Origin: JAGLHV01 sp023132075 [NCBI: bacterium] | GTDB taxonomy: Bacteria; CBDUZB01; JAGLHV01 | Length of the DNA: 10,708 bases | Direction: 5' to 3' | NCBI GenBank assembly: GCA_023132075.1 | Contig: JAGLYT010000025.1 | Coordinates: 1-10,708 of the forward strand | Shown here: in pieces, positions 1 to 10,708 of the stretch | How positions within the stretch are numbered: position 1 is the stretch's first letter | Layout: every line of letters begins with the position of its first letter | The notes under the pieces: model-generated | What the model was told of the DNA's origin: nothing | The model's input: only the letters and a program-made list of their open reading frames with translations | Database searches by the model: none | Program-made: the position numbers and the translations under genes

Positions 1-1177
1 TCATCAATCCGGTTTTCGGAATGTAATGAATTATCCACTTTAAATAACCTTGAGAGTTACTACTTAAATTATCAATGATTTCATTAAAAAGTTTATCGTC
101 TTTTGTTACGGTTTTAGCTGAAAGAACATCAATCCCTATATTCCGGAAAAAAGAAATATTATCAGAAGTTATTGAAATCTTCCCTTGTTCAAGAAATTTT
201 AAAGCCAAAAGTGAATAATATTGAGAAAACCAGGCAGTATTAATAAACCAGGGATTCCCCCCGTAATATGCATCCTCGGGATATCTACCAATTCCCCGAC
301 CGAAATTACCTTCTTCTATCCATTTTTTATTGATAGGATAAAGAGTACCAAATACTTTCTCCATTTCTATTACTGTCTTCATAACCCAGCTATCATCAAC
401 CGGCATAATTGGGTTTTTCAAATCTGAATCTTTTACGATTGAACCAACTACTGATGTATCAATATCTGAATCGAATCCTTTGCCCGGTTTTTTACCTTCA
501 ATGTCCCGCTCTCGCTCTAATGTAGAACGAATATAACCCTCTGAATCATCACAATGCTCAACAATTTCATCTTCCAAAGAATCCAATGCTTGTTTCCACA
601 TTTCTGCAGTATCTACTTTTAAATTATCAGCCAACACCAATCCCTTATTTAATGCTCTTATTTGCGACTTTCTTGTCCAGAAATGAAATCCCATCAAATC
701 TTCCCATAAATCAAAACAGCGATTTTCCCAATGTTCGGCAACATAATCCAAATCTTTTTTGATTACATCATTATAGAGATTTAGTGCTTCATCTATATTT
801 CCTTGTTCTATTAAAAGATTAGCATAATCTATGAGAGCCGCAGCTCTTAATGCCGACCCGTCATTCTGAGGCCTACCCCATTGAGAAGCTGAATCTTCCG
901 CCTCTCCGTCCTCGGCTAAAAATCTTGTCTCCCCCAAATAATATTCTGATTCTGTTTGCTGATTAATTTTTGTGAATTCGATAAATTTTTCTATTATTTT
1001 TCTTAATCTATCCTTTAATTGAGGGTCCTCGGTTTCCTTATATAATTGTATTATTTCTTCTATTACTAGACTGCTATCTCTAATCCAGTGATACATTGTA
1101 TACGGGTGATCTTTTTCAGTGGTCACAAGCATTGCCCCATTATTCTCAAAAGCATCCATTATTTTTTTTATAGATAC
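1..1177 (-). other. Glycoside hydrolase family 15 (glucoamylase-type) catalytic domain, partial (residues ~3178-3569)
   Basis: GH15 enzymes remove glucose from the ends of alpha-glucans by an inverting mechanism in an (alpha/alpha)6 barrel. Four family motifs are visible in order: YHWIRDSSLV (WIRD at 1087..1076; fungal enzymes have YTWTRDS), QWGRPQNDGSALRA (883..842; SWGRPQ.DGPALRA), CFDLWEDLMG (718..689; YDLWEEVNG) and GRYPEDAYYGGNPWF (ending at 245; GRYPED.YYNGNPWF). Glu3336 of LWED corresponds to the catalytic general acid. About 392 residues are in the window. The final visible residues, YIPKTGLM, are where the family continues with an 'sEQ' segment, so the catalytic base and last helices lie beyond base 1. 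No starch-binding domain is seen on the N-terminal side. Close relatives such as glucodextranase or trehalase-type GH15 are possible, so alpha-glucan is the likely but not certain substrate. Confidence 0.93.
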
Positions 1178-4100
1178 TTCTTTCTGTTTAAGTATATCCG
1201 TCTTGAATTTAAACCCTGGTGGTATGTTATCTGTTATTGTTTTCCTTATATCCTCCGGCACTTCAAATTCATATTCTCTTTCTCCTTCTTTCTTTTCTCC
1301 TAAGAACATATTGATTGTATTTATCGGGTTTAATACTGCATCAGTTACCATTAAAACAGCTTTAAGTAAAGTTTCAACATTATACCCAAGCATTGAAGAC
1401 AGGCTTTCTTTTTTGGAACAGGGAAATTCTTTAAAATAATATTTACTATCATTACCTAAAACCATTATTTGGAATACCTTTAATACATCCTCTCCCTCTA
1501 TTTCCAATGAAACACATCTCTCGTAAAAAAGTTCAAAAAACTCAAATATTTGATTTTCATTTACATTTTTATTACCTAATGCAACCAACCATGCTGAAGT
1601 AATTTTTTTTGCATTTGTTTCAGAAAAGCCATAACCTGTCAATTTGTCAATTATTTTGCTATCTACAACTTCTTTTTGCGGCTTTCCCTCCTCTAATAAT
1701 TTAGCAATATCTCTAATTAAAATTTGCGTTCCTACTGAAATAAGATTTTTATTTAAATCAAAAAGTTTTATAAATACCTGCTTTTTAATCTCCCCTTCCT
1801 GTCCTGATTTTACTTTCTCAATTATCTCATCAGCACTGAATTTCAATAATGCCAATTGATATAATTCCAGTTCAAATTCTTCATAACCTGCTTCTTTGAG
1901 TTTTTTATTTTCTACTAAAAAGTAATAAACGATATCTTTAATTTCTTCCGGGATTTCTTCCAATTGTGCACTATTCGTCAAATTTTTCTTTTTAATCATA
2001 TCTTTTACCGGCTTCATATAAATATGAAACATAGAGACCTTTGCAATAACTGCAGCTATTTGTTCATTATCAAAGCCCATTTTTTCATCTACCAAATTTT
2101 TAGTTATAAGATTACCTATAATTGTTTTTTCCTTCGTACTAAGTTTTAATTTTTTCATTTTAGCTTTTGGACGTACTGAACGTATTTCTATTATTATGGG
2201 TTCAACCTTGCTCATTCTTTCCTTAATAAAACGGTCTAATACTTTTTCACTGACTTCTATAGAAACCTGCTGCTTTTCACCACTTATCTGTTTCTTTACT
2301 TCTTCAGGTTTTAATCCCTCTAAAACTATCTTTTGGAAAGCTATAACAAAATCTTCCCCATATTTTTGCAAATTAATACTGTAAGTCAACCAATCAAAAA
2401 ACATAAGCATTTCTCTGCTAATTTTGTTTCTTTTTTCTCTGGAACTTATCCCTATGTCCTTATATAGTTTATCATCTACTAAAAGAGGAACTAATCCTTT
2501 ACGATATTCTTCAGAAAAACCGCACTGCTCTAAAAACTTATCAAGCTCTTTTGCAGACTTTTCCTTCCACACATTTCTCCCAAAAATTCCTTTTTCATCT
2601 GTAATCCTCTGCCGCTCTTTTATAAATTCTTCATCAATCCCTACTTCACCTTTCCTATGTTTAATTCTGCCAAAAGATTTTACATTCAATGATAAGCTTG
2701 CTATCTTTTCTATGAGAGCTATAGCGTCATCAGAAAGTCGATCTAATGTATATCTACTAGCCACAAAATCAACAACCGCCCCAGGTCCTTCTTTTTCTAA
2801 TTTATCGATTATTTCATCAGCACTCAAATAAGCTAAGGCAAGTTGGAATTCAGGGAATAAAACTTTTTTCAAATCTCTATCATAATTTCTATACCTTTCA
2901 CTTCTATTTAAATAGTCATCTATTTTCTTTTTTTCTACGTATAAAAATGAAACTATATCTCCAATCTGTTTTAATCCTACGGCATTATCATCAAATAATG
3001 ATGGATTATCTTTATACTGCCTTATAATATTCAAATCATCAGTGATATTTTCTATGGCAGGAACAGTTAATGCATATATGATTTCCTCAACTGCTGCTTC
3101 ATAAAAACCTAACTCAATCAATTTTTCCTTTGCATATTTCTGAATCGCTTCTTTTACTTCTCTTCTATAATCAGAAAACATCATCGTAGCTTTTTCACCG
3201 TGCATCTGTTTTATTATTCTTTCTGTAATTTCAGAAGGATTATATTCTCTTATATTTTCTAAATTTGTTAATGTCAAAGAGATATATATCCCTTTTGGTT
3301 TTAATATTGTTTCACCTAATTTATAACTATCCAGTAAATCTTTAAACTTAGAGGTCTTCTGTTCATCTCCCTGTAAAAATCCCTTAAGCATTTCCCTGGT
3401 GTAATCAGTAAGATTTATTGTTCGTTTTATCTTTGATTTGATTATTTTATTTTTACTTAAATAATTAAGTAAGTCCTTAATTTTATCTTTTTTAACTTTC
3501 AAAGCATTTTCTAAATAAGAAAGCACATTTCCCCTATCACCATTGGAAGCGGTATACAAATAAAATAATGAATATAATATTTCCAATTCTTCTTCTTCCT
3601 TAATATTATTAACGAAAAAGAGTATCTTTTTCCAATCTTTTATATCGCCGCGCATAGAATTAAACAATTGTTTAACCAAATTCTTTTTATTTTCCAGGAT
3701 ATTTTCTGCAGAGATATCCTGAGCATCTTTTTGTTTTAATGAGACAGATATTATATCTTTTGCTATCCTTTCCAATTCCTGCTGTTTTTTTACATCTTTT
3801 TTTATTTTAAACATCAATATTATAGGAATATTATTAGCTCTTACTATTTTCTTAATCCTTTCTCCTACTGCTTCTTTCCCCAATTCTTCCATTCCGGCTT
3901 GTTCTAATGCCTTATTCCATTCATTTGCATTATTGTTTGATGTGATTATTAGATGGGCTATTTCCTGCGGTATACCGTAGATGTTTACTAACTGATACTC
4001 CCATACCTCATGCCTGGCAAGTGCAGCAAACATTTCTTTTCTCTTCTTACCGGCTAATGCCTTTAACACTTTTAAATATTTCTGATGTATATATAATACT

Positions 4101-7100
4101 AATGTATCCTTTTTATCCGGATGTTCGGCTAATCCGGCCATTGCCCACATTTCCTTCATACTAACCAAATCTTCTCTCGTAGTTCCTCTTACTTGTACTT
4201 TGTCTCGTTCTACCTGTTCTAAGAATTCCGGGGGAATATTCTTTATCATTATTTCTCTTATATACTTAAGAACTTTTACCTCGAATTCTCTTTTTCCTTC
4301 TTTCTTTTCTCCTAAAAACATATTAATTGTATTTATAGGATTTAATACTACATCCGTTACATTTAAGACAACCTGCATTAAGGTTTTTAGATTATAGCCA
4401 AGGGCTGTTCCAAAAGACAACCTTTCTTCCTTTATTGATTCACTTTTTATATGCAGTATTTTATCCAAAGCAATAATAAATTCCTCCGGTTTTTCTAACA
4501 TCCCACCATGTTTAACACCTTTGATTATTTTTACATTACCAGGATAACCGGCAGCTTCCGCTATTTTCCTTGCTTCTATTTCTTCTGTGGTATAATGTTC
4601 CTCTTTGGGATAATCTTCGATACCTAATGCTCCTGCTATAGCAGCGACATAAATTCCCTTAGCCTTTATTCGACGAAGAAGTTCTTTATAATGGTTCTCA
4701 TGATCTTCTTCCATATAATTACAGATACGATTTACAGCTTTAATATCCGCAGAAAGAAATGCTTTCATTACTATATTTATTTTTTTGGCGCTAAGCATAT
4801 TTTTTCTTACAAAAAAATCACCCAAAAAACTCATAAATACAATCGACCCTAGTATTGTTCCTATTCCTTTTACTACCGGTCCAACCAAAGGAATCCGACT
4901 TAAAAAGAAACCACTTCTAATCAACGGAGAAGATAGACTAACTATGCGATTTAGAAACCTTACCTCTTTTACACTCCCTTCTGCTTCTTTTTTAATTGTA
5001 GTACCTATTGTAATAAGTTTTGTACTATCTTTGCCATATTTCACCGCAAATTCCATTCCAATTTCTCCACCTATGGAATGCCCTGCAATAGTAATTTCTT
5101 GTTCATCCAACCGCAGCTTCCCGATAACCTTATTTATATCGTCGGCAAAGGATTCCATTGTAAAATATTCATCTTTATAATCATATCCTTTAAGTACCGA
5201 CTCACCCATCCCTTTAATATCTATCAACAATACATTATAGCCTTCGTTTTTATAATGTTCCTTAATATAATCCCAGTACTCTAAACTCCCTCCCAATCCG
5301 GGAATAAACAACAAAGTCTGTTTAGAATCTACATCTTTTGCTTTCTCTAAAATATAATTAATTTCTATTTCCTTACCGCTGTTATCGATTATACTTACCT
5401 TGTTTTCTTTTTTTCTGCCGTAAGTAAAAGTATCCATCCTATCTTTAAAATAATCGGTCAGTTCTTTCCTTATATTATCATCTACTTCAATGTCTTCAAA
5501 AAAATACTCAAAAGACTCTACTATATTATCAATACATTTGTTAGCAATACCTATATCAACCTCTTCAAATTTGTCCAGGTCGGCTATATCGTGATACATA
5601 AGGATATTATTTTCATCATACCCTAGGTTTTCCCAGAACTTTCTTTTATTGGAAAAATCAACAAATATTTTATCAATAAAGCCTCTTTCAATAATATTGT
5701 TGTGAAGCTTTATCCATGCATTGAGCCTGTCTTTTGCACCTTCAATGTTTCCAGAAATGATATCTCTCCTTAATTCATTGCCAAATATGATAAGTTTCTT
5801 CTCAATCACATATTCCTTGACAGATACCTTAACGCCATCTATTCTAAAAATTCCATCGCTACCTGTTATATAAGGTACAATGAAAGGACAACCGGTGAGT
5901 TGTTTCTGAAATTTTACGTAATTGGCAAAAGAATTACTTATATCTTTGTCCTCATATCTCATCTTTAAGACCATATTTATGTCTTCACTTGTAGCTACGG
6001 ATGAGTGAATATTGCCTTCGCTAATTGTTTTAAGTTCAGTTGAAGCAACACTTATATACTGATCTTCATCACTTTTTGATAATTTATCTATTTTGAATTT
6101 TTCAGGAATAACCATTAAGATTATCAGAGGATTTACTTTGGCAAGAATATAGGTCAATTTATCTGCTATTATCGGGCTTGCTCTTTCCCCTAAAGCTTTA
6201 ATTATCCATCTTAACGCTATTAAACTCAAACCGGCGGCTACCAACGATAACATTATAATACTCATTCCCGGTATCCCCACGATACTAACGGTAGCTGTTG
6301 TAACCTCTGTCGTTGCCTCTGCTTTACTGATAATACCTATTAATAAAGCTATAGTATTTACACCTATCAATGCCAAAAATATACTAAAAAGCTTAGAAAT
6401 TCTACCTGGCAATATTGAAGTTTTTTTCTCTTTTCTAAGTTGTTCGCTAAAACTTACTATATTTTTAAAATGATTTACAACCTTTTCTTTCAACGCTTCT
6501 TTTGAATAAGGCCGTTTTATCTTTTCTTTTTCCAAAACATTGGCAAAAGGCACATATAAATGGATAATTGAATTTAAAATGATTTGCAATGTTTCTCCCG
6601 GAAGTTTTTTAGTTTGTACAGGAGGAAATTCTTCCATTAAGCCCTGACTTGCTTTTTTCATCTCAATTCTTATGTCTGCTTTATTCCGGAGAAGTTCTTC
6701 TTTAAAATATCCTTTAAGAAAACTATGATAAACATTTATTTTTCCTTTTTGATAAATATCAAGGCCTATAAGAGTGTTAATCAAAAGATAAATTCTGGAT
6801 AATACTTCTCCTACTTCGTAAAGTTGATACATAAATACTTGTTCATTCTTTAAATCTTGTTTCCTTTTACTTGATTCTAAATCATGTATTTTGATTTTAT
6901 TTTTCTCATATGAAAAATTAGCTCCGTGAGGATTGCGATGGATAAAACCGGCATTATGAAATCTTCTTAAAGTATGTCCCCATTGCTCAAAAAGTTTTTC
7001 AAAAAAATCTTCCATTTTTTTACCACCCAAAAGTTCCCTGAGATAATCAGAAATTACCACCTGTGCTGTTTTTTTATCCATGGAAACTAAATCTCCCGCA

Positions 7101-10100
7101 AAAAGATTATCAACTCGCCTATCCCTGGGATCTGTAATACCTAATATCACAAATCCTAAAGTTTCACCTTTATATTTAATTTCAGGATATTCGCCATAAG
7201 CTAAAGGAACACTTACAAAATCTCCTTTTTTAAAAGCATTTAGATGGAATTTATACTCTTCCCTTGCCTCTTTATAAATATTTCCACCTAAAGGTTTAGG
7301 AATAGTTTCTTTAATATAAAATTCTCCGTTTTCATCAAATTCGGTATAGAAATCCGGCTGGCCAGAATCATGAAATTCTTTTGTTGTCGGCGGAGTAGGA
7401 TTTTCAGGGTCCGTAAAATAATCACCCAACCCCTTTATTTTTATTGCTGTTATTTTAACTTTATTTACAATGATTGGTTTATCTAAAATTATTAATCCCG
7501 TTCGTCCACTTGGTGCTAAATCAGGTTTAAGCTCCCAGGAAATTACTTTCTTTATTTTTTCAATAATTGCCGGTCGTAAATTAATATCCTGGTTAAAATA
7601 AATTTTATTCTCTAGAAATATTTTCTCTTTCTTTTTGGCTTTTTTAAAAAAAGTTGATATTCCAACAACCATAGTAATCATTGACAAACTCATTATAAAA
7701 GGTAATGCCCCTGCCCCTGGATCAACAACTACGCCTGTTGCTGCCTCTGCCACAGTCATAACCCCGGGAAGGAACATAAATAAACCTGCGGTTAATATAG
7801 GTAATAAAAGAAGGCTCGAAACTTTATTAACAACATCGGGCTTACTTTTCCTTTGTTTAAAGACACGCTCTATCGGTTGTCTTATCTCCAAAGGTGCATT
7901 TTTTACAAAATCCGGAGTCTCCTGCATAAACTCTCTCTTATCCTTATCAAATAACAAAGCTAATAAATCCTGTAAACCTATATCCCCTTCTTTCCCTGTA
8001 ATTTTTCTAACCTCTTCTTTGAAATAATCTAAATTATCCTGATAATATCTGACCACCTTCAAGGCTTCTTCCATTTTCCATTCCTTGAGCATTTCATCTT
8101 TTGAATTTACAGCTGCTGCAGTAATTTCTTCTAATAAACCAGTATCATCTAATCCGCCTGCATTAAAGGGAATTAACCCGGGCATACCGGTATTAATCAG
8201 ATCCATTATTATTCGTTTGGCTTGCCGGTCATCCGAAGCTACCCCAATTTCCATAGAAACCTTGTTTTTAGGGTCCCCTTTCAATAAATGTGCTTTATAA
8301 TTATTAAAAGCGGCAACTACTCTTGCCCGGGGAAGGGCTTCCTTAATCATTTCTGCCACATTTAATTCGCCTGTTTTAACAACTTCTAAAACTTTGTCTT
8401 CTCTTGCTTTCATATTATTTCCCAAAGAAATAATAATTAAATTAGGATTATTGAGTTCTTCTTTATATTGGTCAATAGTAGATTCGATATATTCCACCGG
8501 GACAGCTAAAATCACTATGCCTCCTTCTTTCGAGGCCATTCGCAACATCTCCCCGTTTTCCTCACCTACGATACCTTCAATCTCTATTTCTGCGCTCCTC
8601 AGCTTTTCTTCTAACTCCTTCGCTTTATCTATCCCCTCATCTTTCTTGCGGGAACCAACATAAACATTATGCTTCTTGGCAAACATCAAAGCAAAGTCTT
8701 CAGCAATATCCCCTGTCCCGCCGACGAAATAAATATTCTTTTTCCGCAACGGCAAAGAAACCTCTTTTTGAGCTTTTATATATTCTTTTAAATCTTCTAC
8801 CCCTACTCCTTCTAAAACTATTGCCTGAAAAGCAGCCGGAAAATCTCTTTCTTCAATACCTAACCTATAAAAATTATCCAGCATCAAAACAATAAAACTA
8901 AAGGTTTTAGAAATTGTTTCCTGTACCGTTTTAATCTCTATCTCACCTCTTTTTGCTTGTTCCATCATACTTAAATAAACTTTATTATTTAAAAGAGCCG
9001 AACCCATTTTCCCTGCATCTTTTTGGGAAAAGCCACACCCCTCAAATCTACTTTTGGCATAGTCAAATTTATCGTTGTATTCCTCTTCATCCAAAACAGA
9101 ATTATTAATAATACTGATTAAACCATCTTCATTTTCCTTTAAACATTGAACTGTTTGTATTAGAAAATTTTCAACTTCATCAGGAAGATTACTCCACCTA
9201 TATTCATTGTATTCTTTAGAAAGCTTTGTCCAATTTAATGATTTTTCCAGAGAAGGATAGCTTTGGTCATCTATTAAAATTTCATGATACATCTTGCCAT
9301 TAATAAAACATTCTACCCATTTATGCCCCAGTTCGGTAAGAACTACTTTCCTTTTTTCTTTTCTTTCGATTACTCCTACAATATTCCCATAAAGAAGTAT
9401 TCGATTAACTTCACTCTCTTCTATATTTAACTGGGAAGCTATAATATCAGCATCAATATCGGGTACCATATGATAACAAAGGAATACCCGCAACATATTT
9501 AATTCGTGGCTATTAAGCCGACTGATAAAATCGATTATCTTGACTAATTTAATCCAATCTTTCATCTCCAGAATAATCTGGGATAAAGCTTCCAGAGAAA
9601 CAGGCCCTCTTAAAAACTCTACAGCTCGTTTTACCTCATCTTGGCCGGCAGCTATCTCCAAGTCTATTATTTCCTCTTCTGTATATCCCGCAATTAAACC
9701 CATTACTACAGAATAAGAAATATTTTCATTCACAATAAAAGAACCGAAAAGTTTTTTAAATGTTTTTTTGTTTTTTTCTAATATGCTACATATTTCTTTT
9801 AGCTTCTTCAACCTCTCTTTTTCGCCCTTATTTACGACAACCATGAGCTGTCTTCCAAATTTTCCTTTTCTCTCCTCCGCAAATTCTTCTATAATTTTTC
9901 TATCCTTTGCCTCAGCATTCTCCCACAACTCTTCAATCCCGGTAATTACAGCTTTTTCTATCCTTTTTTTATCCTCTGAAAAAACCGTTCTCCATGTTTT
10001 ATCGATTTTCTCGATTATACCCTCTCCTGTTTTTATTTTTTCAATCACAGTGATAATAGCAGAAAGCGTGGTAAATTTTATTTCCGGCTTTTCTTCCCGG

Positions 10101-10708
10101 GTAGGAGTAACTTCCTTTGGTTCATCAAATCTTTTCCCGACAAATTCTTCAATAAACTCTTTATTTGGTTCATACAACGCATCATCTATATAATTACTCT
10201 CCAATACTTTTTCTGCCATTCTTGCTGCAGTTGTCTTAATCAACAATTCTTCCTGTACCAAATAAGCCAAAGCAATAACACAATAGGTATTTGCCCGCTT
10301 ATTTTTCTGGGAATTAAACCTTAAATATTTACTAATTCTTTCTATTGCTGCCTCTAAGCCGCCTTTTGCCCCGGCTAAAACTTCTTTTTCATTCCGGTTT
10401 ATCCGGTTTATGATGATTTCAGCCATTGCTTCCATTGTTTCTGATAACTCTGTTTGCCCATAACCCAACTCTCTCGCTAATTGATCAAGAACAATAAACG
10501 ATTCTTTTAGCTGCTGAACAGGTATTTTCTTTTTACCACAAATGCTCCTAACCATTCGTATATGCTCAATCCATGGTTCTTTCTTATTCAATCGGTTATA
10601 TTTACGCAGTTTAGCTAATCTTATATCTAATTCTTTATTCTTTGCCTGTTCCTTTGATTTTATATCCTTACTTGTTTTTACCACCATTAATAGCGCCAAA
10701 GGCAACAG
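1..10708 (-). CDS. Giant multidomain protein, partial at both ends (at least 3,569 codons)
   Basis: One minus-strand frame is open across the entire window. The first complete codon is 10708..10706 and the last is 4..2, with no in-frame stop. Both the start codon and the stop codon lie outside. Continuous domain homology along the frame (reductase, hydrolase and glucoamylase all in phase) shows that it is truly coding and not a chance opening. The domains are a winged helix, an F420-dependent NADP reductase-like domain, two transmembrane hairpins, two kinase-like regions, an alpha/beta hydrolase, a second winged helix, duplicated helical blocks and a GH15 glucoamylase domain at the downstream edge. 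No single function can be assigned; a membrane-anchored multi-enzyme scaffold or polyprotein is an inference. Codon use looks uniform (AT-rich, AGA and ATA common), with no patch that suggests a recent insertion. Candidatus Omnitrophota is the most likely source, by analogy with known giant proteins of that group. Confidence 0.95.
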   Translation of the reverse strand, partial: MLPLALLMVVKTSKDIKSKEQAKNKELDIRLAKLRKYNRLNKKEPWIEHIRMVRSICGKKKIPVQQLKESFIVLDQLARELGYGQTELSETMEAMAEIIINRINRNEKEVLAGAKGGLEAAIERISKYLRFNSQKNKRANTYCVIALAYLVQEELLIKTTAARMAEKVLESNYIDDALYEPNKEFIEEFVGKRFDEPKEVTPTREEKPEIKFTTLSAIITVIEKIKTGEGIIEKIDKTWRTVFSEDKKRIEKAVITGIEELWENAEAKDRKIIEEFAEERKGKFGRQLMVVVNKGEKERLKKLKEICSILEKNKKTFKKLFGSFIVNENISYSVVMGLIAGYTEEEIIDLEIAAGQDEVKRAVEFLRGPVSLEALSQIILEMKDWIKLVKIIDFISRLNSHELNMLRVFLCYHMVPDIDADIIASQLNIEESEVNRILLYGNIVGVIERKEKRKVVLTELGHKWVECFINGKMYHEILIDDQSYPSLEKSLNWTKLSKEYNEYRWSNLPDEVENFLIQTVQCLKENEDGLISIINNSVLDEEEYNDKFDYAKSRFEGCGFSQKDAGKMGSALLNNKVYLSMMEQAKRGEIEIKTVQETISKTFSFIVLMLDNFYRLGIEERDFPAAFQAIVLEGVGVEDLKEYIKAQKEVSLPLRKKNIYFVGGTGDIAEDFALMFAKKHNVYVGSRKKDEGIDKAKELEEKLRSAEIEIEGIVGEENGEMLRMASKEGGIVILAVPVEYIESTIDQYKEELNNPNLIIISLGNNMKAREDKVLEVVKTGELNVAEMIKEALPRARVVAAFNNYKAHLLKGDPKNKVSMEIGVASDDRQAKRIIMDLINTGMPGLIPFNAGGLDDTGLLEEITAAAVNSKDEMLKEWKMEEALKVVRYYQDNLDYFKEEVRKITGKEGDIGLQDLLALLFDKDKREFMQETPDFVKNAPLEIRQPIERVFKQRKSKPDVVNKVSSLLLLPILTAGLFMFLPGVMTVAEAATGVVVDPGAGALPFIMSLSMITMVVGISTFFKKAKKKEKIFLENKIYFNQDINLRPAIIEKIKKVISWELKPDLAPSGRTGLIILDKPIIVNKVKITAIKIKGLGDYFTDPENPTPPTTKEFHDSGQPDFYTEFDENGEFYIKETIPKPLGGNIYKEAREEYKFHLNAFKKGDFVSVPLAYGEYPEIKYKGETLGFVILGITDPRDRRVDNLFAGDLVSMDKKTAQVVISDYLRELLGGKKMEDFFEKLFEQWGHTLRRFHNAGFIHRNPHGANFSYEKNKIKIHDLESSKRKQDLKNEQVFMYQLYEVGEVLSRIYLLINTLIGLDIYQKGKINVYHSFLKGYFKEELLRNKADIRIEMKKASQGLMEEFPPVQTKKLPGETLQIILNSIIHLYVPFANVLEKEKIKRPYSKEALKEKVVNHFKNIVSFSEQLRKEKKTSILPGRISKLFSIFLALIGVNTIALLIGIISKAEATTEVTTATVSIVGIPGMSIIMLSLVAAGLSLIALRWIIKALGERASPIIADKLTYILAKVNPLIILMVIPEKFKIDKLSKSDEDQYISVASTELKTISEGNIHSSVATSEDINMVLKMRYEDKDISNSFANYVKFQKQLTGCPFIVPYITGSDGIFRIDGVKVSVKEYVIEKKLIIFGNELRRDIISGNIEGAKDRLNAWIKLHNNIIERGFIDKIFVDFSNKRKFWENLGYDENNILMYHDIADLDKFEEVDIGIANKCIDNIVESFEYFFEDIEVDDNIRKELTDYFKDRMDTFTYGRKKENKVSIIDNSGKEIEINYILEKAKDVDSKQTLLFIPGLGGSLEYWDYIKEHYKNEGYNVLLIDIKGMGESVLKGYDYKDEYFTMESFADDINKVIGKLRLDEQEITIAGHSIGGEIGMEFAVKYGKDSTKLITIGTTIKKEAEGSVKEVRFLNRIVSLSSPLIRSGFFLSRIPLVGPVVKGIGTILGSIVFMSFLGDFFVRKNMLSAKKINIVMKAFLSADIKAVNRICNYMEEDHENHYKELLRRIKAKGIYVAAIAGALGIEDYPKEEHYTTEEIEARKIAEAAGYPGNVKIIKGVKHGGMLEKPEEFIIALDKILHIKSESIKEERLSFGTALGYNLKTLMQVVLNVTDVVLNPINTINMFLGEKKEGKREFEVKVLKYIREIMIKNIPPEFLEQVERDKVQVRGTTREDLVSMKEMWAMAGLAEHPDKKDTLVLYIHQKYLKVLKALAGKKRKEMFAALARHEVWEYQLVNIYGIPQEIAHLIITSNNNANEWNKALEQAGMEELGKEAVGERIKKIVRANNIPIILMFKIKKDVKKQQELERIAKDIISVSLKQKDAQDISAENILENKKNLVKQLFNSMRGDIKDWKKILFFVNNIKEEEELEILYSLFYLYTASNGDRGNVLSYLENALKVKKDKIKDLLNYLSKNKIIKSKIKRTINLTDYTREMLKGFLQGDEQKTSKFKDLLDSYKLGETILKPKGIYISLTLTNLENIREYNPSEITERIIKQMHGEKATMMFSDYRREVKEAIQKYAKEKLIELGFYEAAVEEIIYALTVPAIENITDDLNIIRQYKDNPSLFDDNAVGLKQIGDIVSFLYVEKKKIDDYLNRSERYRNYDRDLKKVLFPEFQLALAYLSADEIIDKLEKEGPGAVVDFVASRYTLDRLSDDAIALIEKIASLSLNVKSFGRIKHRKGEVGIDEEFIKERQRITDEKGIFGRNVWKEKSAKELDKFLEQCGFSEEYRKGLVPLLVDDKLYKDIGISSREKRNKISREMLMFFDWLTYSINLQKYGEDFVIAFQKIVLEGLKPEEVKKQISGEKQQVSIEVSEKVLDRFIKERMSKVEPIIIEIRSVRPKAKMKKLKLSTKEKTIIGNLITKNLVDEKMGFDNEQIAAVIAKVSMFHIYMKPVKDMIKKKNLTNSAQLEEIPEEIKDIVYYFLVENKKLKEAGYEEFELELYQLALLKFSADEIIEKVKSGQEGEIKKQVFIKLFDLNKNLISVGTQILIRDIAKLLEEGKPQKEVVDSKIIDKLTGYGFSETNAKKITSAWLVALGNKNVNENQIFEFFELFYERCVSLEIEGEDVLKVFQIMVLGNDSKYYFKEFPCSKKESLSSMLGYNVETLLKAVLMVTDAVLNPINTINMFLGEKKEGEREYEFEVPEDIRKTITDNIPPGFKFKTDILKQKEVSIKKIMDAFENNGAMLVTTEKDHPYTMYHWIRDSSLVIEEIIQLYKETEDPQLKDRLRKIIEKFIEFTKINQQTESEYYLGETRFLAEDGEAEDSASQWGRPQNDGSALRAAALIDYANLLIEQGNIDEALNLYNDVIKKDLDYVAEHWENRCFDLWEDLMGFHFWTRKSQIRALNKGLVLADNLKVDTAEMWKQALDSLEDEIVEHCDDSEGYIRSTLERERDIEGKKPGKGFDSDIDTSVVGSIVKDSDLKNPIMPVDDSWVMKTVIEMEKVFGTLYPINKKWIEEGNFGRGIGRYPEDAYYGGNPWFINTAWFSQYYSLLALKFLEQGKISITSDNISFFRNIGIDVLSAKTVTKDDKLFNEIIDNLSSNSQGYLKWIIHYIPKTGLM
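1211..1393 (-). repeat. 61-residue 'LNPINTINMFLGEKKEG' module, copy B
   Basis: It reads from MLGYNVETLLK through LNPINTINMFLGEKKEG to NIPPGF and matches copy A at 4223-4405 without gaps. The core DNA, 1277-1348, is about 90% identical to 4289-4360, far closer than any other repeated pair in this gene. It lies immediately before the glucoamylase domain, only about 10 residues away. Confidence 0.85.
1454..1633 (-). repeat. 'CGFS...IVLEG' helical repeat, copy 3 (60 residues, most diverged)
   Basis: It begins YGFSETNAKKITSAWL and ends VFQIMVLG. The opening Cys is replaced by Tyr and the final Glu is lost. The length falls in steps from copy 1 (77) through copy 2 (70) to this copy (60). It closes tandem unit 2. 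Confidence 0.65.
1454..2251 (-). repeat. Tandem helical block, unit 2 (about 266 residues)
   Basis: It begins about 20 codons after unit 1 ends and repeats its anchors in order: SEKVLDRFIKE, a PIIIEI strand, MGFDNEQIAAVI, DIVYYFLVENKK, QLALLKFSADEIIEK and a GFS...FQIMVLG end. The closest DNA match is around the ADEII codons (1820-1837 against 2807-2824). The unit leads into module copy B and then the glucoamylase domain. A helical scaffold with no visible active site. Confidence 0.7.
2315..2524 (-). repeat. 'CGFS...IVLEG' helical repeat, copy 2 (70 residues)
   Basis: It begins CGFSEEYRKGLVPLL and ends AFQKIVLEG. It closes tandem unit 1. Compared with copy 1 at 8807-9037, the ends are nearly the same (CGFS; AFQ.IVLEG) and the middle is shortened by 7 residues, with SREKRNKISREML in place of the longer loop. 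Confidence 0.72.
2315..3235 (-). repeat. Tandem helical block, unit 1 (about 307 residues)
   Basis: Anchor points shared with unit 2 appear in the same order. They are SEITERIIKQ (unit 2 SEKVLDRFIKE), ELGFYEAAVEEII (EKMGFDNEQIAAVI), DIVSFLYVEKKK (DIVYYFLVENKK), QLALAYLSADEIIDKLEK (QLALLKFSADEIIEKVKS) and the CGFS...IVLEG repeat at its end. Unit 1 is longer by about 41 residues, mainly through an insertion near 2560-2680 (reading GRIKHRKGEVGIDEEF) before the CGFS repeat. It has no catalytic signature; a helical scaffold is the likely role. Confidence 0.7.
3365..3589 (-). other. Winged helix-turn-helix-like fold, copy 2 (residues ~2374-2448)
   Basis: The order is ELEILYSLFYLY (first helix), a helix-turn-helix (LENALKVKKDKIKDLLNYL), a turn with KNKIIKSKIKR, and a wing strand ending INLTDYTREML. 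This has the same length (75 residues) and pattern as copy 1 at 9296-9520, including the closing LT and the preceding DW helix. Sequence identity is low, so the pair would be an old duplication. The sequence does not show whether it binds DNA. The call rests on pattern alone. Confidence 0.5.
3590..4222 (-). other. Helical region of unknown function (residues ~2163-2373)
   Basis: About 211 residues of charged helices. The first part (MKEMWAMAGLAEHPDKKDT, then LKVLKALAGKKRKEMFAAL) resembles a helical-repeat solenoid. At 3865..3794 a GERIKKIVRANNIPIILMF segment repeats the helix-then-strand pattern seen near 9870, 6130 and 2200. It ends with SMRGDIKDWKKILFFVNNI, which matches the MKDWIKLVKIIDFI lead of winged helix 1. 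The order 'PIIL strand, DW helix, winged helix' is therefore shared with the N-terminal part of the window. Confidence 0.5.
4223..4405 (-). repeat. 61-residue 'LNPINTINMFLGEKKEG' module, copy A
   Basis: The module runs from ALGYNLKTLMQ through LNPINTINMFLGEKKEG to NIPPEF. Its partner at 1211-1393 has exactly the same length, 61 codons with no gaps. The DNA of the core (4289-4360) matches 1277-1348 at 65 of 72 positions by my count. Five of the seven differences are synonymous and two change residues (Ala/Val and Glu/Lys). This copy follows the alpha/beta hydrolase directly; the other precedes the glucoamylase domain directly. It is therefore probably a linker or docking element next to enzyme domains. 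I do not recognise the family. Confidence 0.85.
4445..5398 (-). other. Alpha/beta hydrolase domain with intact-looking catalytic triad (residues ~1771-2088)
   Basis: The domain starts with paired strands (VSIIDNSGKEIEINYIL), then FIPGLGGSLEYW (5308..5288), the oxyanion-hole loop of alpha/beta hydrolases. The nucleophile elbow GHSIGG is at 5083..5066, with Ser1878 as predicted nucleophile. The late strand GIYVAAIAGALGIEDYP places an acidic residue (Glu or Asp of IED) in the usual acid position. KHGGMLEKPEEF carries the predicted catalytic His2067, encoded by 4510..4508. Between elbow and acid, a cap with a strongly hydrophobic stretch (near 4800-4930, including RIPLVGPVVKGIGTILGSIV) may be a membrane-facing lid. 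Length and motif order fit an esterase/lipase or C-C hydrolase-like member. The substrate cannot be told from the sequence; the hydrophobic cap hints at a lipid-like one. Confidence 0.88.
5432..6055 (-). other. Degenerate kinase-like region (residues ~1552-1759)
   Basis: The segment has a layout reminiscent of a small kinase fold: a Lys-bearing strand (MVLKMRYED), a second strand pair (VSVKEYVIEKKLI), a helix (LNAWIKLHNNIIERGFIDKIF), then ILMYHDIADL, where Asp1707 sits where a DFG-type Asp would be. The HRD/HGD catalytic loop is not recognisable; GFIDKIFVDFSN occupies its place. It may be a second, more decayed copy of the kinase-like domain upstream, or an unrelated alpha/beta fold. The spacing from hairpin 2 to this region differs from the spacing from hairpin 1 to the first kinase-like domain. 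Low confidence. Confidence 0.3.
6200..6391 (-). other. Transmembrane hairpin 2 with signal-peptide-like first helix (residues ~1440-1503)
   Basis: A basic lead is followed by a helix of about 21 hydrophobic residues (LFSIFLALIGVNTIALLIGII) that ends in SKAEATTE. A-E-A is encoded by 6322..6314 and gives a possible signal peptidase site after residue 1465. A loop rich in Thr, Val and Gly (EVTTATVSIVGIPG) leads to a second long hydrophobic helix (SIIMLSLVAAGLSLIAL) with a basic exit (RWIIKALGER). The layout, and the AEA-(A/T)-T sequence itself, repeat those of hairpin 1, so the two are probably duplicates. The external loop has no Lys or Arg beyond the Lys next to AEA. Confidence 0.8.
6392..6685 (-). 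other. Helical connector before second hairpin
   Basis: About 98 residues of mixed amphipathic helix (for example TLQIILNSIIHLYVPFANVL) lead to a basic stretch, LRKEKKTSILPGR, just before the next hydrophobic helix. I recognise no motif. It probably completes the C-lobe of the kinase-like domain and gives the basic flank of hairpin 2. Confidence 0.45.
6686..7609 (-). other. Kinase-like domain with altered catalytic loop (residues ~1034-1341)
   Basis: The core is 6940..6917, reading HRNPHGAN, preceded by LRRFHNAGFI and followed 12 residues later by KIHDLES. This matches the pattern of aminoglycoside-phosphotransferase/ABC1-type kinases, where 'HGDLHPGN' is the catalytic loop and 'iDfe' the metal-binding motif. 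The His, the second His and the metal-binding Asn are kept, and Asp1276 stands for the DFG-type Asp. The catalytic Asp of the loop is replaced by Asn1259. An upstream AIKIKG strand could be the Lys-bearing strand of the N-lobe. A helical C-lobe follows. The replacement suggests a pseudokinase or a changed mechanism. The fold assignment rests mainly on the loop, so confidence is moderate. Confidence 0.5.
7640..7819 (-). other. Transmembrane hairpin 1 with signal-peptide-like first helix (residues ~964-1023)
   Basis: The first hydrophobic helix (SLLLLPILTAGLFMFLPGVM) follows a basic stretch and ends in TVAEAATG. The order of basic n-region, Leu-rich h-region, Pro/Gly break and A-x-A is that of a signal peptide, with a possible signal peptidase I site after residue 989 (codons 7750..7742 encode A-E-A). 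A loop of about 15 residues, free of basic residues (VVVDPGAG), leads to a second hydrophobic helix (PFIMSLSMITMVVGIS), then a lysine-rich exit (FFKKAKKKEK). By the positive-inside rule both flanks are cytoplasmic and the loop is external. The same arrangement recurs at 6200-6391. Confidence 0.8.
7820..8101 (-). other. Helical linker between reductase-like domain and first hairpin
   Basis: About 94 residues of charged helices (for example EEALKVVRYYQDNLDYFKEE) lead to a strongly basic stretch, ERVFKQRKSKPD, immediately before the hydrophobic hairpin. The basic stretch would act as the cytoplasmic n-region of that membrane segment. I see no catalytic motif. Confidence 0.5.
8102..8740 (-). other. 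F420-dependent NADP reductase-like domain (NpdG/Fno fold, residues ~657-869)
   Basis: Stand-alone members of this family transfer hydride between coenzyme F420 and NADP(H). The domain opens with KNIYFVGGTGDIAEDFA, a Rossmann strand and glycine-rich loop of the GGTGD type typical of NpdG/Fno. The GSR motif follows at 8656..8648, where family members contact the 2'-phosphate of NADP. Then come a VILAVPVEYIES strand, a SLGNNMK turn, the family-like segment ALPRARVVAAFNNYKAHLL, and a C-terminal NAGGLDDTGLLEEIT that resembles the substrate-side end of the family. Length is about 213 residues, close to the usual size of about 210-230. A complete domain of this kind inside a giant chain is unusual. 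Whether it binds F420 or only NADP, or has lost activity, cannot be read from the sequence. Related ferric-reductase-like or NADP-binding F420_oxidored folds are alternatives. Confidence 0.82.
8807..9037 (-). repeat. 'CGFS...IVLEG' helical repeat, copy 1 (77 residues)
   Basis: The unit begins CGFSQKDAGK and ends FQAIVLEG. Two further copies occur at 2315-2524 (70 residues, CGFSEEYRKG to FQKIVLEG) and 1454-1633 (60 residues, YGFSETNAKK to FQIMVLG). All share a GFS opening, a Leu-rich first helix, a central helix rich in Phe and Leu, and an 'aFQ.IVLEG' closing helix. Length differs by loop shortening in the middle. It sits just before the reductase-like domain. I do not recognise it as a named family. 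Confidence 0.7.
9296..9520 (-). other. Winged helix-turn-helix-like fold, copy 1 (residues ~397-471)
   Basis: The segment has the order of a winged helix. A first helix follows SHELNMLRVF. A helix-turn-helix comes next (IDADIIASQLNIEESEVNRIL, with hydrophobic spacing typical of 'dIA..L.i....V...L'). A gly-containing turn (LYGNIVGVIERKEK) leads to a wing strand ending in VVLTELGHKW. The 'LTe.G' ending is common in MarR/ArsR-type winged helices. A preceding MKDWIKLVKIIDFI helix is shared with the second winged helix at 3365-3589. In a giant membrane-associated chain such a fold may bind protein and not DNA. The call comes from the residue pattern only. Confidence 0.55.
9521..10678 (-). other. 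Long helical region of unknown function (residues ~11-396)
   Basis: This stretch of about 386 residues is rich in Lys, Glu, Ile and Leu and reads as successive amphipathic helices. I recognise no catalytic motif. It holds a short Pro/Thr/Glu-rich linker near 10070-10130 (reading DEPKEVTPTREEKPE) that divides it into two lobes. In the second lobe, 9904..9827 carries a helix followed by a hydrophobic strand (RQLMVVVNK) that resembles strand motifs found later near 6130, 3830 and 2200. Near 9660-9690 a TEEEII segment resembles the ADEII segments of the two tandem blocks downstream. The region leads directly into a winged-helix-like fold. The most likely role is a scaffold or interaction surface. 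Confidence 0.5.
10679..10708 (-). other. C-terminal end of a hydrophobic/transmembrane segment cut by the window
   Basis: The first ten visible residues are LLPLALLMVV, followed at once by a basic stretch (KTSKDIKSK). This matches the way the second helix of both complete hairpins ends: hydrophobic residues, then lysine-rich sequence. It is probably the exit helix of a third hairpin whose first helix lies upstream of the window. Only ten residues are visible, so this is tentative. Confidence 0.45.

What the first reader, a model, noticed from the sequence alone, without database searches (positions are those of the whole stretch)
1..10708. A single open frame of at least 3,569 codons fills the window
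Reading the minus strand from 10708 to 2 meets no stop, and recognisable domains stay in the same phase from end to end. Genes of this size are rare in bacteria. Giant proteins are established for Candidatus Omnitrophota; that this sequence comes from that phylum is inference.
Basis: partly seen in the sequence, partly recalled or inferred. Interest (0 to 1): 0.75.

Follow-up and report, generated by a model that had tools for sequence, protein, structure and literature searches.

The report
Slice of a giant bacterial membrane protein
This stretch of DNA is the inside of one enormous bacterial gene that strings many enzymes onto a single chain, and between the enzymes the chain carries repeated membrane loops that look like built-in cutting sites, so the cell may make it as one piece and cut it into several.

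Summary
In detail: minus-strand 10708-2 is one open frame of 3,569 codons (composition model P about 10^-146). The window is an entire contig. Six further contigs of the same MAG are open end to end, one of 35,308 bp (11,769 codons); all seven total 86,756 bp, 28,916 codons. Forty other contigs of that MAG reach at most 1,532 aa, so normal stops are used. Repeated blocks keep strand and codon phase (80 of 84 matches); 18 pairs of blocks gave dN/dS 0.24-0.68: selected coding sequence.

Omnitrophota is not supported: the genome's phylum holds three genomes, one genus; one is titled plainly "bacterium".

Anatomy: helical modules, an NpdG-like reductase, a kinase-like region, an alpha/beta hydrolase and a GH15 glucoamylase, separated by a recurrent linker and membrane hairpins. 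Thirteen of 15 family hairpins found in the genus carry a signal-peptidase-I-like site ([A/V/S]-x-A).

Best reading: a new variant of the known bacterial giant proteins, a membrane-threaded multi-enzyme chain, possibly cut by signal peptidase. Cutting is inferred; a weight-matrix score did not support it.

The parts
2..10708 (-). Open frame of 3,569 codons, open at both contig ends: internal slice of a giant gene (P0001)
8744..9841 (-). Helical module 1 (aa 290-655), homologous to C13 aa 1931-2405; contains a weak winged-helix-like stretch near aa 386-463
   Evidence: all-helical model of low confidence, mean pLDDT 57
8105..8734 (-). NpdG / F420-dependent NADP reductase-like domain (aa 659-868); GGTGD loop at aa 663-667
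   Evidence: TIGR01915 E 9.3e-34, 117.3 bits, under its 149.8 cut-off; PF03807; PDB 1jax
7619..7861 (-). Membrane hairpin 1 (aa 950-1030) with signal-peptidase-like site AEA (aa 987-989, window 7742-7750)
6509..7591 (-). Kinase-like region (aa about 1040-1400); weak Bud32 match aa 1225-1288; HRNPHGAN at aa 1257-1264 where active kinases of this type have HGD..N (motif recalled)
   Evidence: TIGR03724 E 0.0097, weak; structure model uninformative
6134..6427 (-). Membrane hairpin 2 (aa 1428-1525) with signal-peptidase-like site AEA (aa 1463-1465, window 6314-6322)
4478..5326 (-). Alpha/beta hydrolase domain (aa 1795-2077): GHSIGG at 1876-1881 and VKHGG at 2065-2069
   Evidence: PF00561 E 1.1e-13
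3719..4438 (-). Recurrent linker (NxxxLxxxxLxxTDxVLNPxNxxNxFLGEKKEG) plus a 200-aa domain (aa 2091-2330), related to stretches of C141, C356 (two places) and G001:C105
2264..3418 (-). Helical module 2 (aa 2431-2815), homologous to C13
1451..1636 (-). Partial third copy of the helical module core (aa 3025-3086)
1211..1450 (-). Second copy of the recurrent linker (aa 3087-3166), directly ahead of the glucoamylase domain
2..1144 (-). GH15 glucoamylase domain (aa 3189-3569), cut by the contig end; WGRPQ at 3277-3281 and FDLWE at 3332-3336
   Evidence: PF00723 E 2.3e-47; PDB glucoamylases

Best explanation
The window is an internal slice of a giant protein gene (or of one of a few such genes) in a bacterium of a very small phylum. 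The protein is a string of enzyme and helical modules that grew by in-frame duplication and shuffling of cassettes. Repeated hairpins thread it through the inner membrane: each has a basic N-flank, a hydrophobic segment ending in [A/V/S]-x-A, a short loop without positive charges, a second hydrophobic segment, and usually a basic C-flank. By the positive-inside rule the enzyme modules beside the hairpins face the cytoplasm and the loops face out. Most likely mechanism: the chain is inserted as it is made, and signal peptidase I cuts at these sites, giving membrane-anchored enzyme units (in this window up to aa 989, 990-1465, and 1466 onward). Shown: open frame, coding constraint, cassette reuse, hairpin grammar, a signal peptidase I gene. 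Inferred: topology, cutting, one transcript, and that the seven open contigs belong to one gene.
For: Frame and coding; dN/dS 0.24-0.68 in the 18 overlapping block pairs kept (aa identity 45% or more, E <= 1e-10; weaker pairs were left out), 0.24-0.39 in the 7 that involve the window; 84 of 84 DNA matches between blocks on the same coding strand, 80 of 84 in the same codon phase. Extent: seven end-to-end open contigs in this MAG, 28,916 codons. Separate assemblies: G001:C105 matches C1 at 89.8% nt over 1,403 bp, open throughout; G001:C48 open end to end; G002:C178 holds a 7,631-codon frame. Hairpins: 13 places in the first profile scan, 11 with both segments and a site; in those the -1 Ala and a Gly upstream are invariant at 29% mean pairwise identity, -3 is A (9), V (1) or S (1), and no K/R occurs in the 17 residues after the site in 11 of 11. 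Two hairpins found afterwards (C387, G001:C48) carry A-x-A. Strict grammar with +2 Pro: 8 of 82 internal membrane segments of giants against 0 of 395 in ordinary proteins; A-x-A only, 11 of 82 against 6 of 395; [AVST]-x-A, 13 of 82 against 14 of 395. Modules beside hairpins are of cytoplasmic kinds: NpdG-like, methyltransferase in C387 and a histidine-kinase-type ATPase in G001:C48. Signal peptidase I in 3 of 3 genomes, in G000 cut by the contig end.
Against: A weight matrix trained on the genomes' own N-terminal signal peptides did not separate the giants: 0 of 83 internal segments reached the 99th percentile of 421 ordinary ones (the training set of 65 was noisy). In the first, narrower count plain A-x-A was only 6 of 65 against 12 of 437. 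The hairpins are homologous, so the tests overstate independence; the grammar was set after seeing them; the two later finds came from a profile that includes the site. Two family members lack the first segment and site. In G002 and, as far as its contig reaches, G001 the giant starts with its own signal peptide and a SecA-like part precedes any hairpin, which would put an ATPase-like part outside: an all-cytoplasmic chain does not explain that. No proteome or transcript was available.
Confidence: 0.45

Rival explanations
1. An uncut giant, membrane-anchored multi-enzyme protein: the hairpins are simple anchors spread by duplication, and their [A/V/S]-x-A is inherited from the signal peptide from which the cassette arose, without being cut.
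For: Hairpins are one homologous family; the weight-matrix test is negative; a published giant of 39,678 aa with 42 predicted membrane helices is discussed as one protein (Seymour et al. 2023, passages).
Against: The -1 Ala is invariant and the -3 residue among the most conserved columns while most of the hydrophobic core varies, which an unused relic would not predict.
Confidence: 0.35
2. An exported surface giant used in attachment to or digestion of other cells, as proposed for Omnitrophota giants.
For: N-terminal signal peptide ending AYAQ in both same-genus genomes; SecA-like domain shared with giants of another phylum; glycoside-active domains GH15 and GH130.
Against: NpdG-like reductase, methyltransferases, a weak GNAT match (below cut-off) and a histidine-kinase-type ATPase are cytoplasmic kinds as a rule; basic flanks of the hairpins point inward; no discoidin, laminin G or dockerin domain at E <= 0.01 in the frames scanned.
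Confidence: 0.15
3. Artefact: contig mis-joins, a recoded stop, or a decaying region that happens to be open.
For: MAG in 389 contigs, 86.7% complete; a truncated phosphoglycerate mutase fragment in C13.
Against: Other contigs of the MAG have frames of ordinary length; separate assemblies agree; dN/dS below 1 and phase kept; motifs of three enzyme domains kept.
Confidence: 0.03

Closest known systems
Giant ORFs of Omnitrophota, including the 39,678-aa protein of Ca. Velamenicoccus archaeovorus (Seymour et al. 2023, PMC10066038, passages; Kizina et al. 2022 not held, known only through that paper)
   Same: Open frames over 20 kb in small genomes, many predicted membrane helices, few annotated domains, poor conservation between species.
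   Different: Different phylum in the held GTDB sample; several metabolic enzyme domains with motifs kept; a repeated hairpin with signal-peptidase-like sites, a feature not mentioned in the passages that I read.
Giant genes with divergent SecA DEAD domains (West-Roberts et al. 2023, bioRxiv; abstract recalled, not held; cited second-hand in PMC12057145, passages)
   Same: SecA-like parts in the giants of G002 and G001 and in the own-genome contig C301; membrane segments; carbohydrate-active domains.
   Different: The SecA part is on another contig than the window; whether it is the same gene is inferred.
Signal-peptidase-processed bacterial fusion precursors such as the cytochrome b/c1 precursor FbcH (recalled, no call)
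   Same: One reading frame carrying an internal signal-peptide-like segment ahead of a further part.
   Different: FbcH has one such site (recalled); here 13 family hairpins with a site were found in the genus, 9 of them in this MAG.

Membership tests
Bacterial giant genes (frame over 20 kb, membrane segments) | Single stop-free frame over 20 kb | tested here: inconclusive
   Window frame 10.7 kb, open at both ends; contig C1 of the same MAG is one 35.3-kb open frame and G002:C178 holds 22.9 kb. That the window's own gene exceeds 20 kb is inferred.
Bacterial giant genes (frame over 20 kb, membrane segments) | Several predicted membrane segments | tested here: met
SecA-bearing giant proteins | Divergent SecA DEAD domain | tested here: inconclusive
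   Absent from the window; present in own contig C301, in G002:C178, whose hairpins are homologous to the window's, and in G001:C386.
Omnitrophota | Phylum placement | tested here: not met
   Phylum of the window's genome holds 3 genomes, one genus; indirect, as no named marker-gene tree could be built.
GH15 glucoamylase | Family profile and catalytic acid motif | tested here: met
   PF00723 E 2.3e-47; FDLWE aligned to FDLWEE of 2vn4 (that it holds the catalytic acid is recalled). The catalytic base should lie beyond the contig end (recalled position).
NpdG (F420-dependent NADP reductase) | Equivalog cut-off of TIGR01915 | tested here: not met
   117.3 bits against 149.8: related, not certified as NpdG.
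Signal-peptidase-processed polyprotein | Sites of the right grammar and orientation, enzyme in the genome | tested here: inconclusive
   Grammar and orientation met, enzyme present; weight-matrix test negative
Signal-peptidase-processed polyprotein | Cleavage in the cell | not testable with these tools
   no proteome

The most novel reading that the evidence does not exclude
A cellular (non-viral) bacterial polyprotein: one gene of possibly more than 28,000 codons that encodes many unrelated enzymes as one membrane-threaded chain, cut into separate anchored enzymes by the cell's ordinary signal peptidase I at duplicated internal signal-peptide hairpins. It would be a way to deliver a fixed set of enzymes to the membrane from one message, evolving by cassette shuffling.
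Probability: 0.3. Interest if true: 0.88.

Novelty: new variant of a known kind. Interest (0 to 1): 0.6.

Why it matters
Giant bacterial genes are known, but whether such chains act whole or in pieces is open as far as the passages I read go. Internal signal-peptidase-like sites give a simple, testable answer, and the same hairpins may be sought in the Omnitrophota giants, one of which has peptide data (Seymour et al. 2023, passages). The case also places such giants in a further, tiny phylum and ties them to ordinary metabolic enzymes rather than adhesins.

Tried and rejected
Gap lengths between repeated blocks as a coding test: inconclusive. 106 of 362 gap runs were multiples of three over all matches, no better than chance; in matches of 85% identity or more, 2 of 7 or 3 of 4 by gap setting. 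Too few gaps at high identity, alignment noise at low identity.

Weight matrix for signal peptidase sites: negative, as told above.

Capture of host gene fragments: the phosphoglycerate mutase fragment of C13 has no match elsewhere in the three genomes at E <= 0.01, and the window's aa 570-3569 matches only other giant-frame contigs (C141, C356, C13) in the own genome at E <= 10. No free-standing donor copy was found in a MAG that is 86.7% complete; rejected for lack of support.

Finding the gene's ends: the terminal 31, 41 or 61 bases of six of the seven open contigs occur nowhere else in those six or in 40 other contigs (C387 was not yet held; two 21-base matches only). The start is seen in G002 and G001, not in G000; the stop was not found.

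Structure models: kinase-like region, single sequence, mean pLDDT 33, not used. Helical module, mean pLDDT 57; Foldseek found nothing at E <= 0.001 among 87 matches; the rows of higher probability are short, mostly winged-helix stretches.

Relatives in viral contigs: none by the linker alignment. Phages: no DNA match for window 1-8000. Named genomes: only JAGLHV010000193.1, identical to G001:C105.

Papers: no paper in the held library has 'Omnitrophota' with 'polyprotein', or 'giant protein' with 'polyprotein' and 'signal peptidase'; the one paper with 'internal signal peptide', 'polyprotein', 'signal peptidase' and 'bacteria' is on orthobunyaviruses (listing); the one with 'Omnitroph', 'SecA' and 'giant' (listing) and the eight listed were not opened; 'ROV157' is in no paper. 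Most subscription papers and all preprints are missing, so absence from print is not claimed.

Full report
OBSERVATION. Minus-strand 10708-2 is open for 3,569 codons. With the base composition of that strand 320 stops are expected and the chance of none is about 10^-146; the two other frames hold 397 and 400 stops. The window is the complete contig C168 of a MAG of 1,874,619 bases in 389 contigs, 86.71% complete, 1.67% contaminated. Start and stop lie outside.

NOT A CHANCE OR AN ASSEMBLY PRODUCT. Among 40 other contigs of the MAG (three read only to 20 kb) the longest stop-free frame is 1,532 aa; 17 readable contigs of the same-genus genome G002 (five read only to 20 kb) reach 1,028 aa. Six further contigs of the window's MAG are open from end to end: C1 35,308 bp (11,769 codons), C13 13,646 (4,548), C301 9,807 (3,269), C356 7,878 (2,625), C387 6,315 (2,105), C141 3,094 (1,031). 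With the window that makes 86,756 bp, 4.6% of the MAG, and 28,916 codons. I held 47 of the 389 contigs, so there may be more. G001 has end-to-end open contigs C105 and C48; G002:C178 has a frame of 7,631 codons that runs off the contig, beside a separate 4,244-codon frame. G001:C105 matches C1 at 89.8% nt over 1,403 bp. Eighteen block pairs (aa identity 45% or more; many overlap) gave dN/dS from 0.24 to 0.68, and 84 of 84 DNA matches between blocks lie on the same coding strand, 80 of 84 in the same codon phase. The gap-length test was inconclusive.

ANATOMY. In protein coordinates: helical module 290-655; NpdG-like 659-868; hairpin 950-1030; kinase-like region about 1040-1400 (weak); hairpin 1428-1525; alpha/beta hydrolase 1795-2077; linker plus domain 2091-2330; helical module 2431-2815 and a partial third copy 3025-3086; linker 3087-3166; GH15 from 3189 to the contig end. 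The same helical module stands ahead of the reductase here and, in another copy, ahead of a hairpin in C13: scaffold modules with varying cargo. The linker stands ahead of a 200-aa domain and ahead of GH15. Other open frames carry a GH130 domain, a weak GNAT match and a phosphoglycerate mutase fragment (C13), methyltransferases (C1; C387), SecA-like parts (C301; G002; G001:C386), TPR repeats (G002) and a histidine-kinase-type ATPase (G001:C48). C356, C141 and G001:C105 gave no Pfam match at E <= 0.01. The window's aa 570-3569 has no free-standing relative in the MAG at E <= 10.

HAIRPINS. A profile from hairpin 2 found 13 places, in four of the ten frames then held (C1, C13, C168 and the G002 giant; none in C356, C141, C301, G001:C105, G001:C386 or the 4,244-codon neighbour). 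Eleven have both hydrophobic segments and a site; two (C1 near 1746, C13 near 3208) hold only the second part. In the eleven, -1 is always Ala, -3 is A in nine, V in one, S in one, an upstream Gly is invariant, +2 is Pro in eight, no K or R occurs in 17 residues after the site, and mean pairwise identity is 29% (0.13-0.81). A search of the three genomes with the eleven gave 13 places, two of them new (C387, G001:C48), and both have A-x-A.

CONTROLS. Against 395 internal segments of ordinary proteins, the strict grammar (with +2 Pro) gave 0 there and 8 of 82 in giants; A-x-A alone 6 of 395 and 11 of 82 (one of the 11, in C301, is no family member); [AVST]-x-A 14 of 395 and 13 of 82. An earlier, narrower count gave, giants against ordinary internal segments, 3 of 65 and 0 of 437 for the Pro form, 6 of 65 and 12 of 437 for A-x-A, 18 of 65 and 65 of 437 for [ASVT]-x-A; ordinary N-terminal single segments had 4, 10 and 32 of 93. 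Isolated internal hairpins with the Pro form: 7 of 19 against 0 of 7. A weight matrix from 65 noisy N-terminal signal peptides gave no excess: 0 of 83 against 5 of 421 at or above the 99th percentile. The copies are related, the grammar was set after seeing them, and the profile that found the two new ones includes the site. Signal peptidase I is encoded in 3 of 3 genomes.

HOW IT WOULD WORK. Basic flanks and uncharged loops place the neighbouring modules inside and the sites outside, where signal peptidase I acts (topology inferred; where that enzyme acts is established knowledge). Cutting would give anchored enzyme units; the window would contribute three. The giant begins in G002 and G001 with a signal peptide ending AYAQ, and a SecA-like part precedes the first hairpin; this does not fit a purely cytoplasmic chain, and I leave it open.

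WHAT IS KNOWN. Giant ORFs over 20 kb are common in Omnitrophota, with many membrane helices and few annotated domains; [quoted passage not shown] archaeovorus, whose giant has 39,678 aa (Seymour et al. 2023, passages). A second paper (passages) cites predicted proteins to 85,800 aa and calls giant genes common in Omnitrophota, Elusimicrobia and CG03; a third (passages) lists Omnitrophica among phyla enriched in huge proteins. SecA-bearing giants also occur in another phylum of 44 held genomes: matched frames of 13,300, 8,325, 8,229 and 2,321 aa in four genomes, frames of 322-1,208 aa otherwise; 41 of 44 had a match. The window's phylum holds three genomes, one genus, so the Omnitrophota label is not supported; the phylum was not named.

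VERDICT. Real giant gene; akin to a known class in size and membrane segments, a new variant in its repeated signal-peptide-like hairpins and metabolic cargo. Cutting by signal peptidase is the most novel reading and remains untested.

Noticed in passing
G002:C178 3013-15744 (L031): A separate 4,244-codon frame with its own N-terminal signal peptide lies upstream of the 7,631-codon giant, with a 376-codon frame between; G001:C386 keeps this order (frames 42% and 62% identical to the end of the first and to the second).
   Followed up: yes
L027 (G000:C13), first 48 residues of the frame: A strongly matching fragment of cofactor-independent phosphoglycerate mutase (profile 85-132 of 217) stops just ahead of a hairpin; no other copy was found in the three genomes.
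   Followed up: partly
L122 (G000:C301) aa 2242-2732: SecA-like DEAD, preprotein-binding and P-loop parts inside a 3,269-codon open frame; what a SecA-like part does in such a chain is unclear.
   Followed up: no
L039/L040 (G000:C1): Many DNA duplications at about 71-96% identity within one 35-kb frame, and hairpins near aa 1736 (partial, no site), 3461, 5141 and 6758 spaced 1,617-1,725 aa apart.
   Followed up: no
L124-L126, L131 (G090:C42 33271-73170): A 13,300-codon SecA-bearing frame in an unrelated phylum, repetitive at its start and with few membrane segments.
   Followed up: partly
window 6917-6940 (P0001 aa 1257-1264): The kinase-like region reads HRNPHGAN where active relatives usually have HGD..N (recalled), so it may be a pseudokinase.
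   Followed up: no
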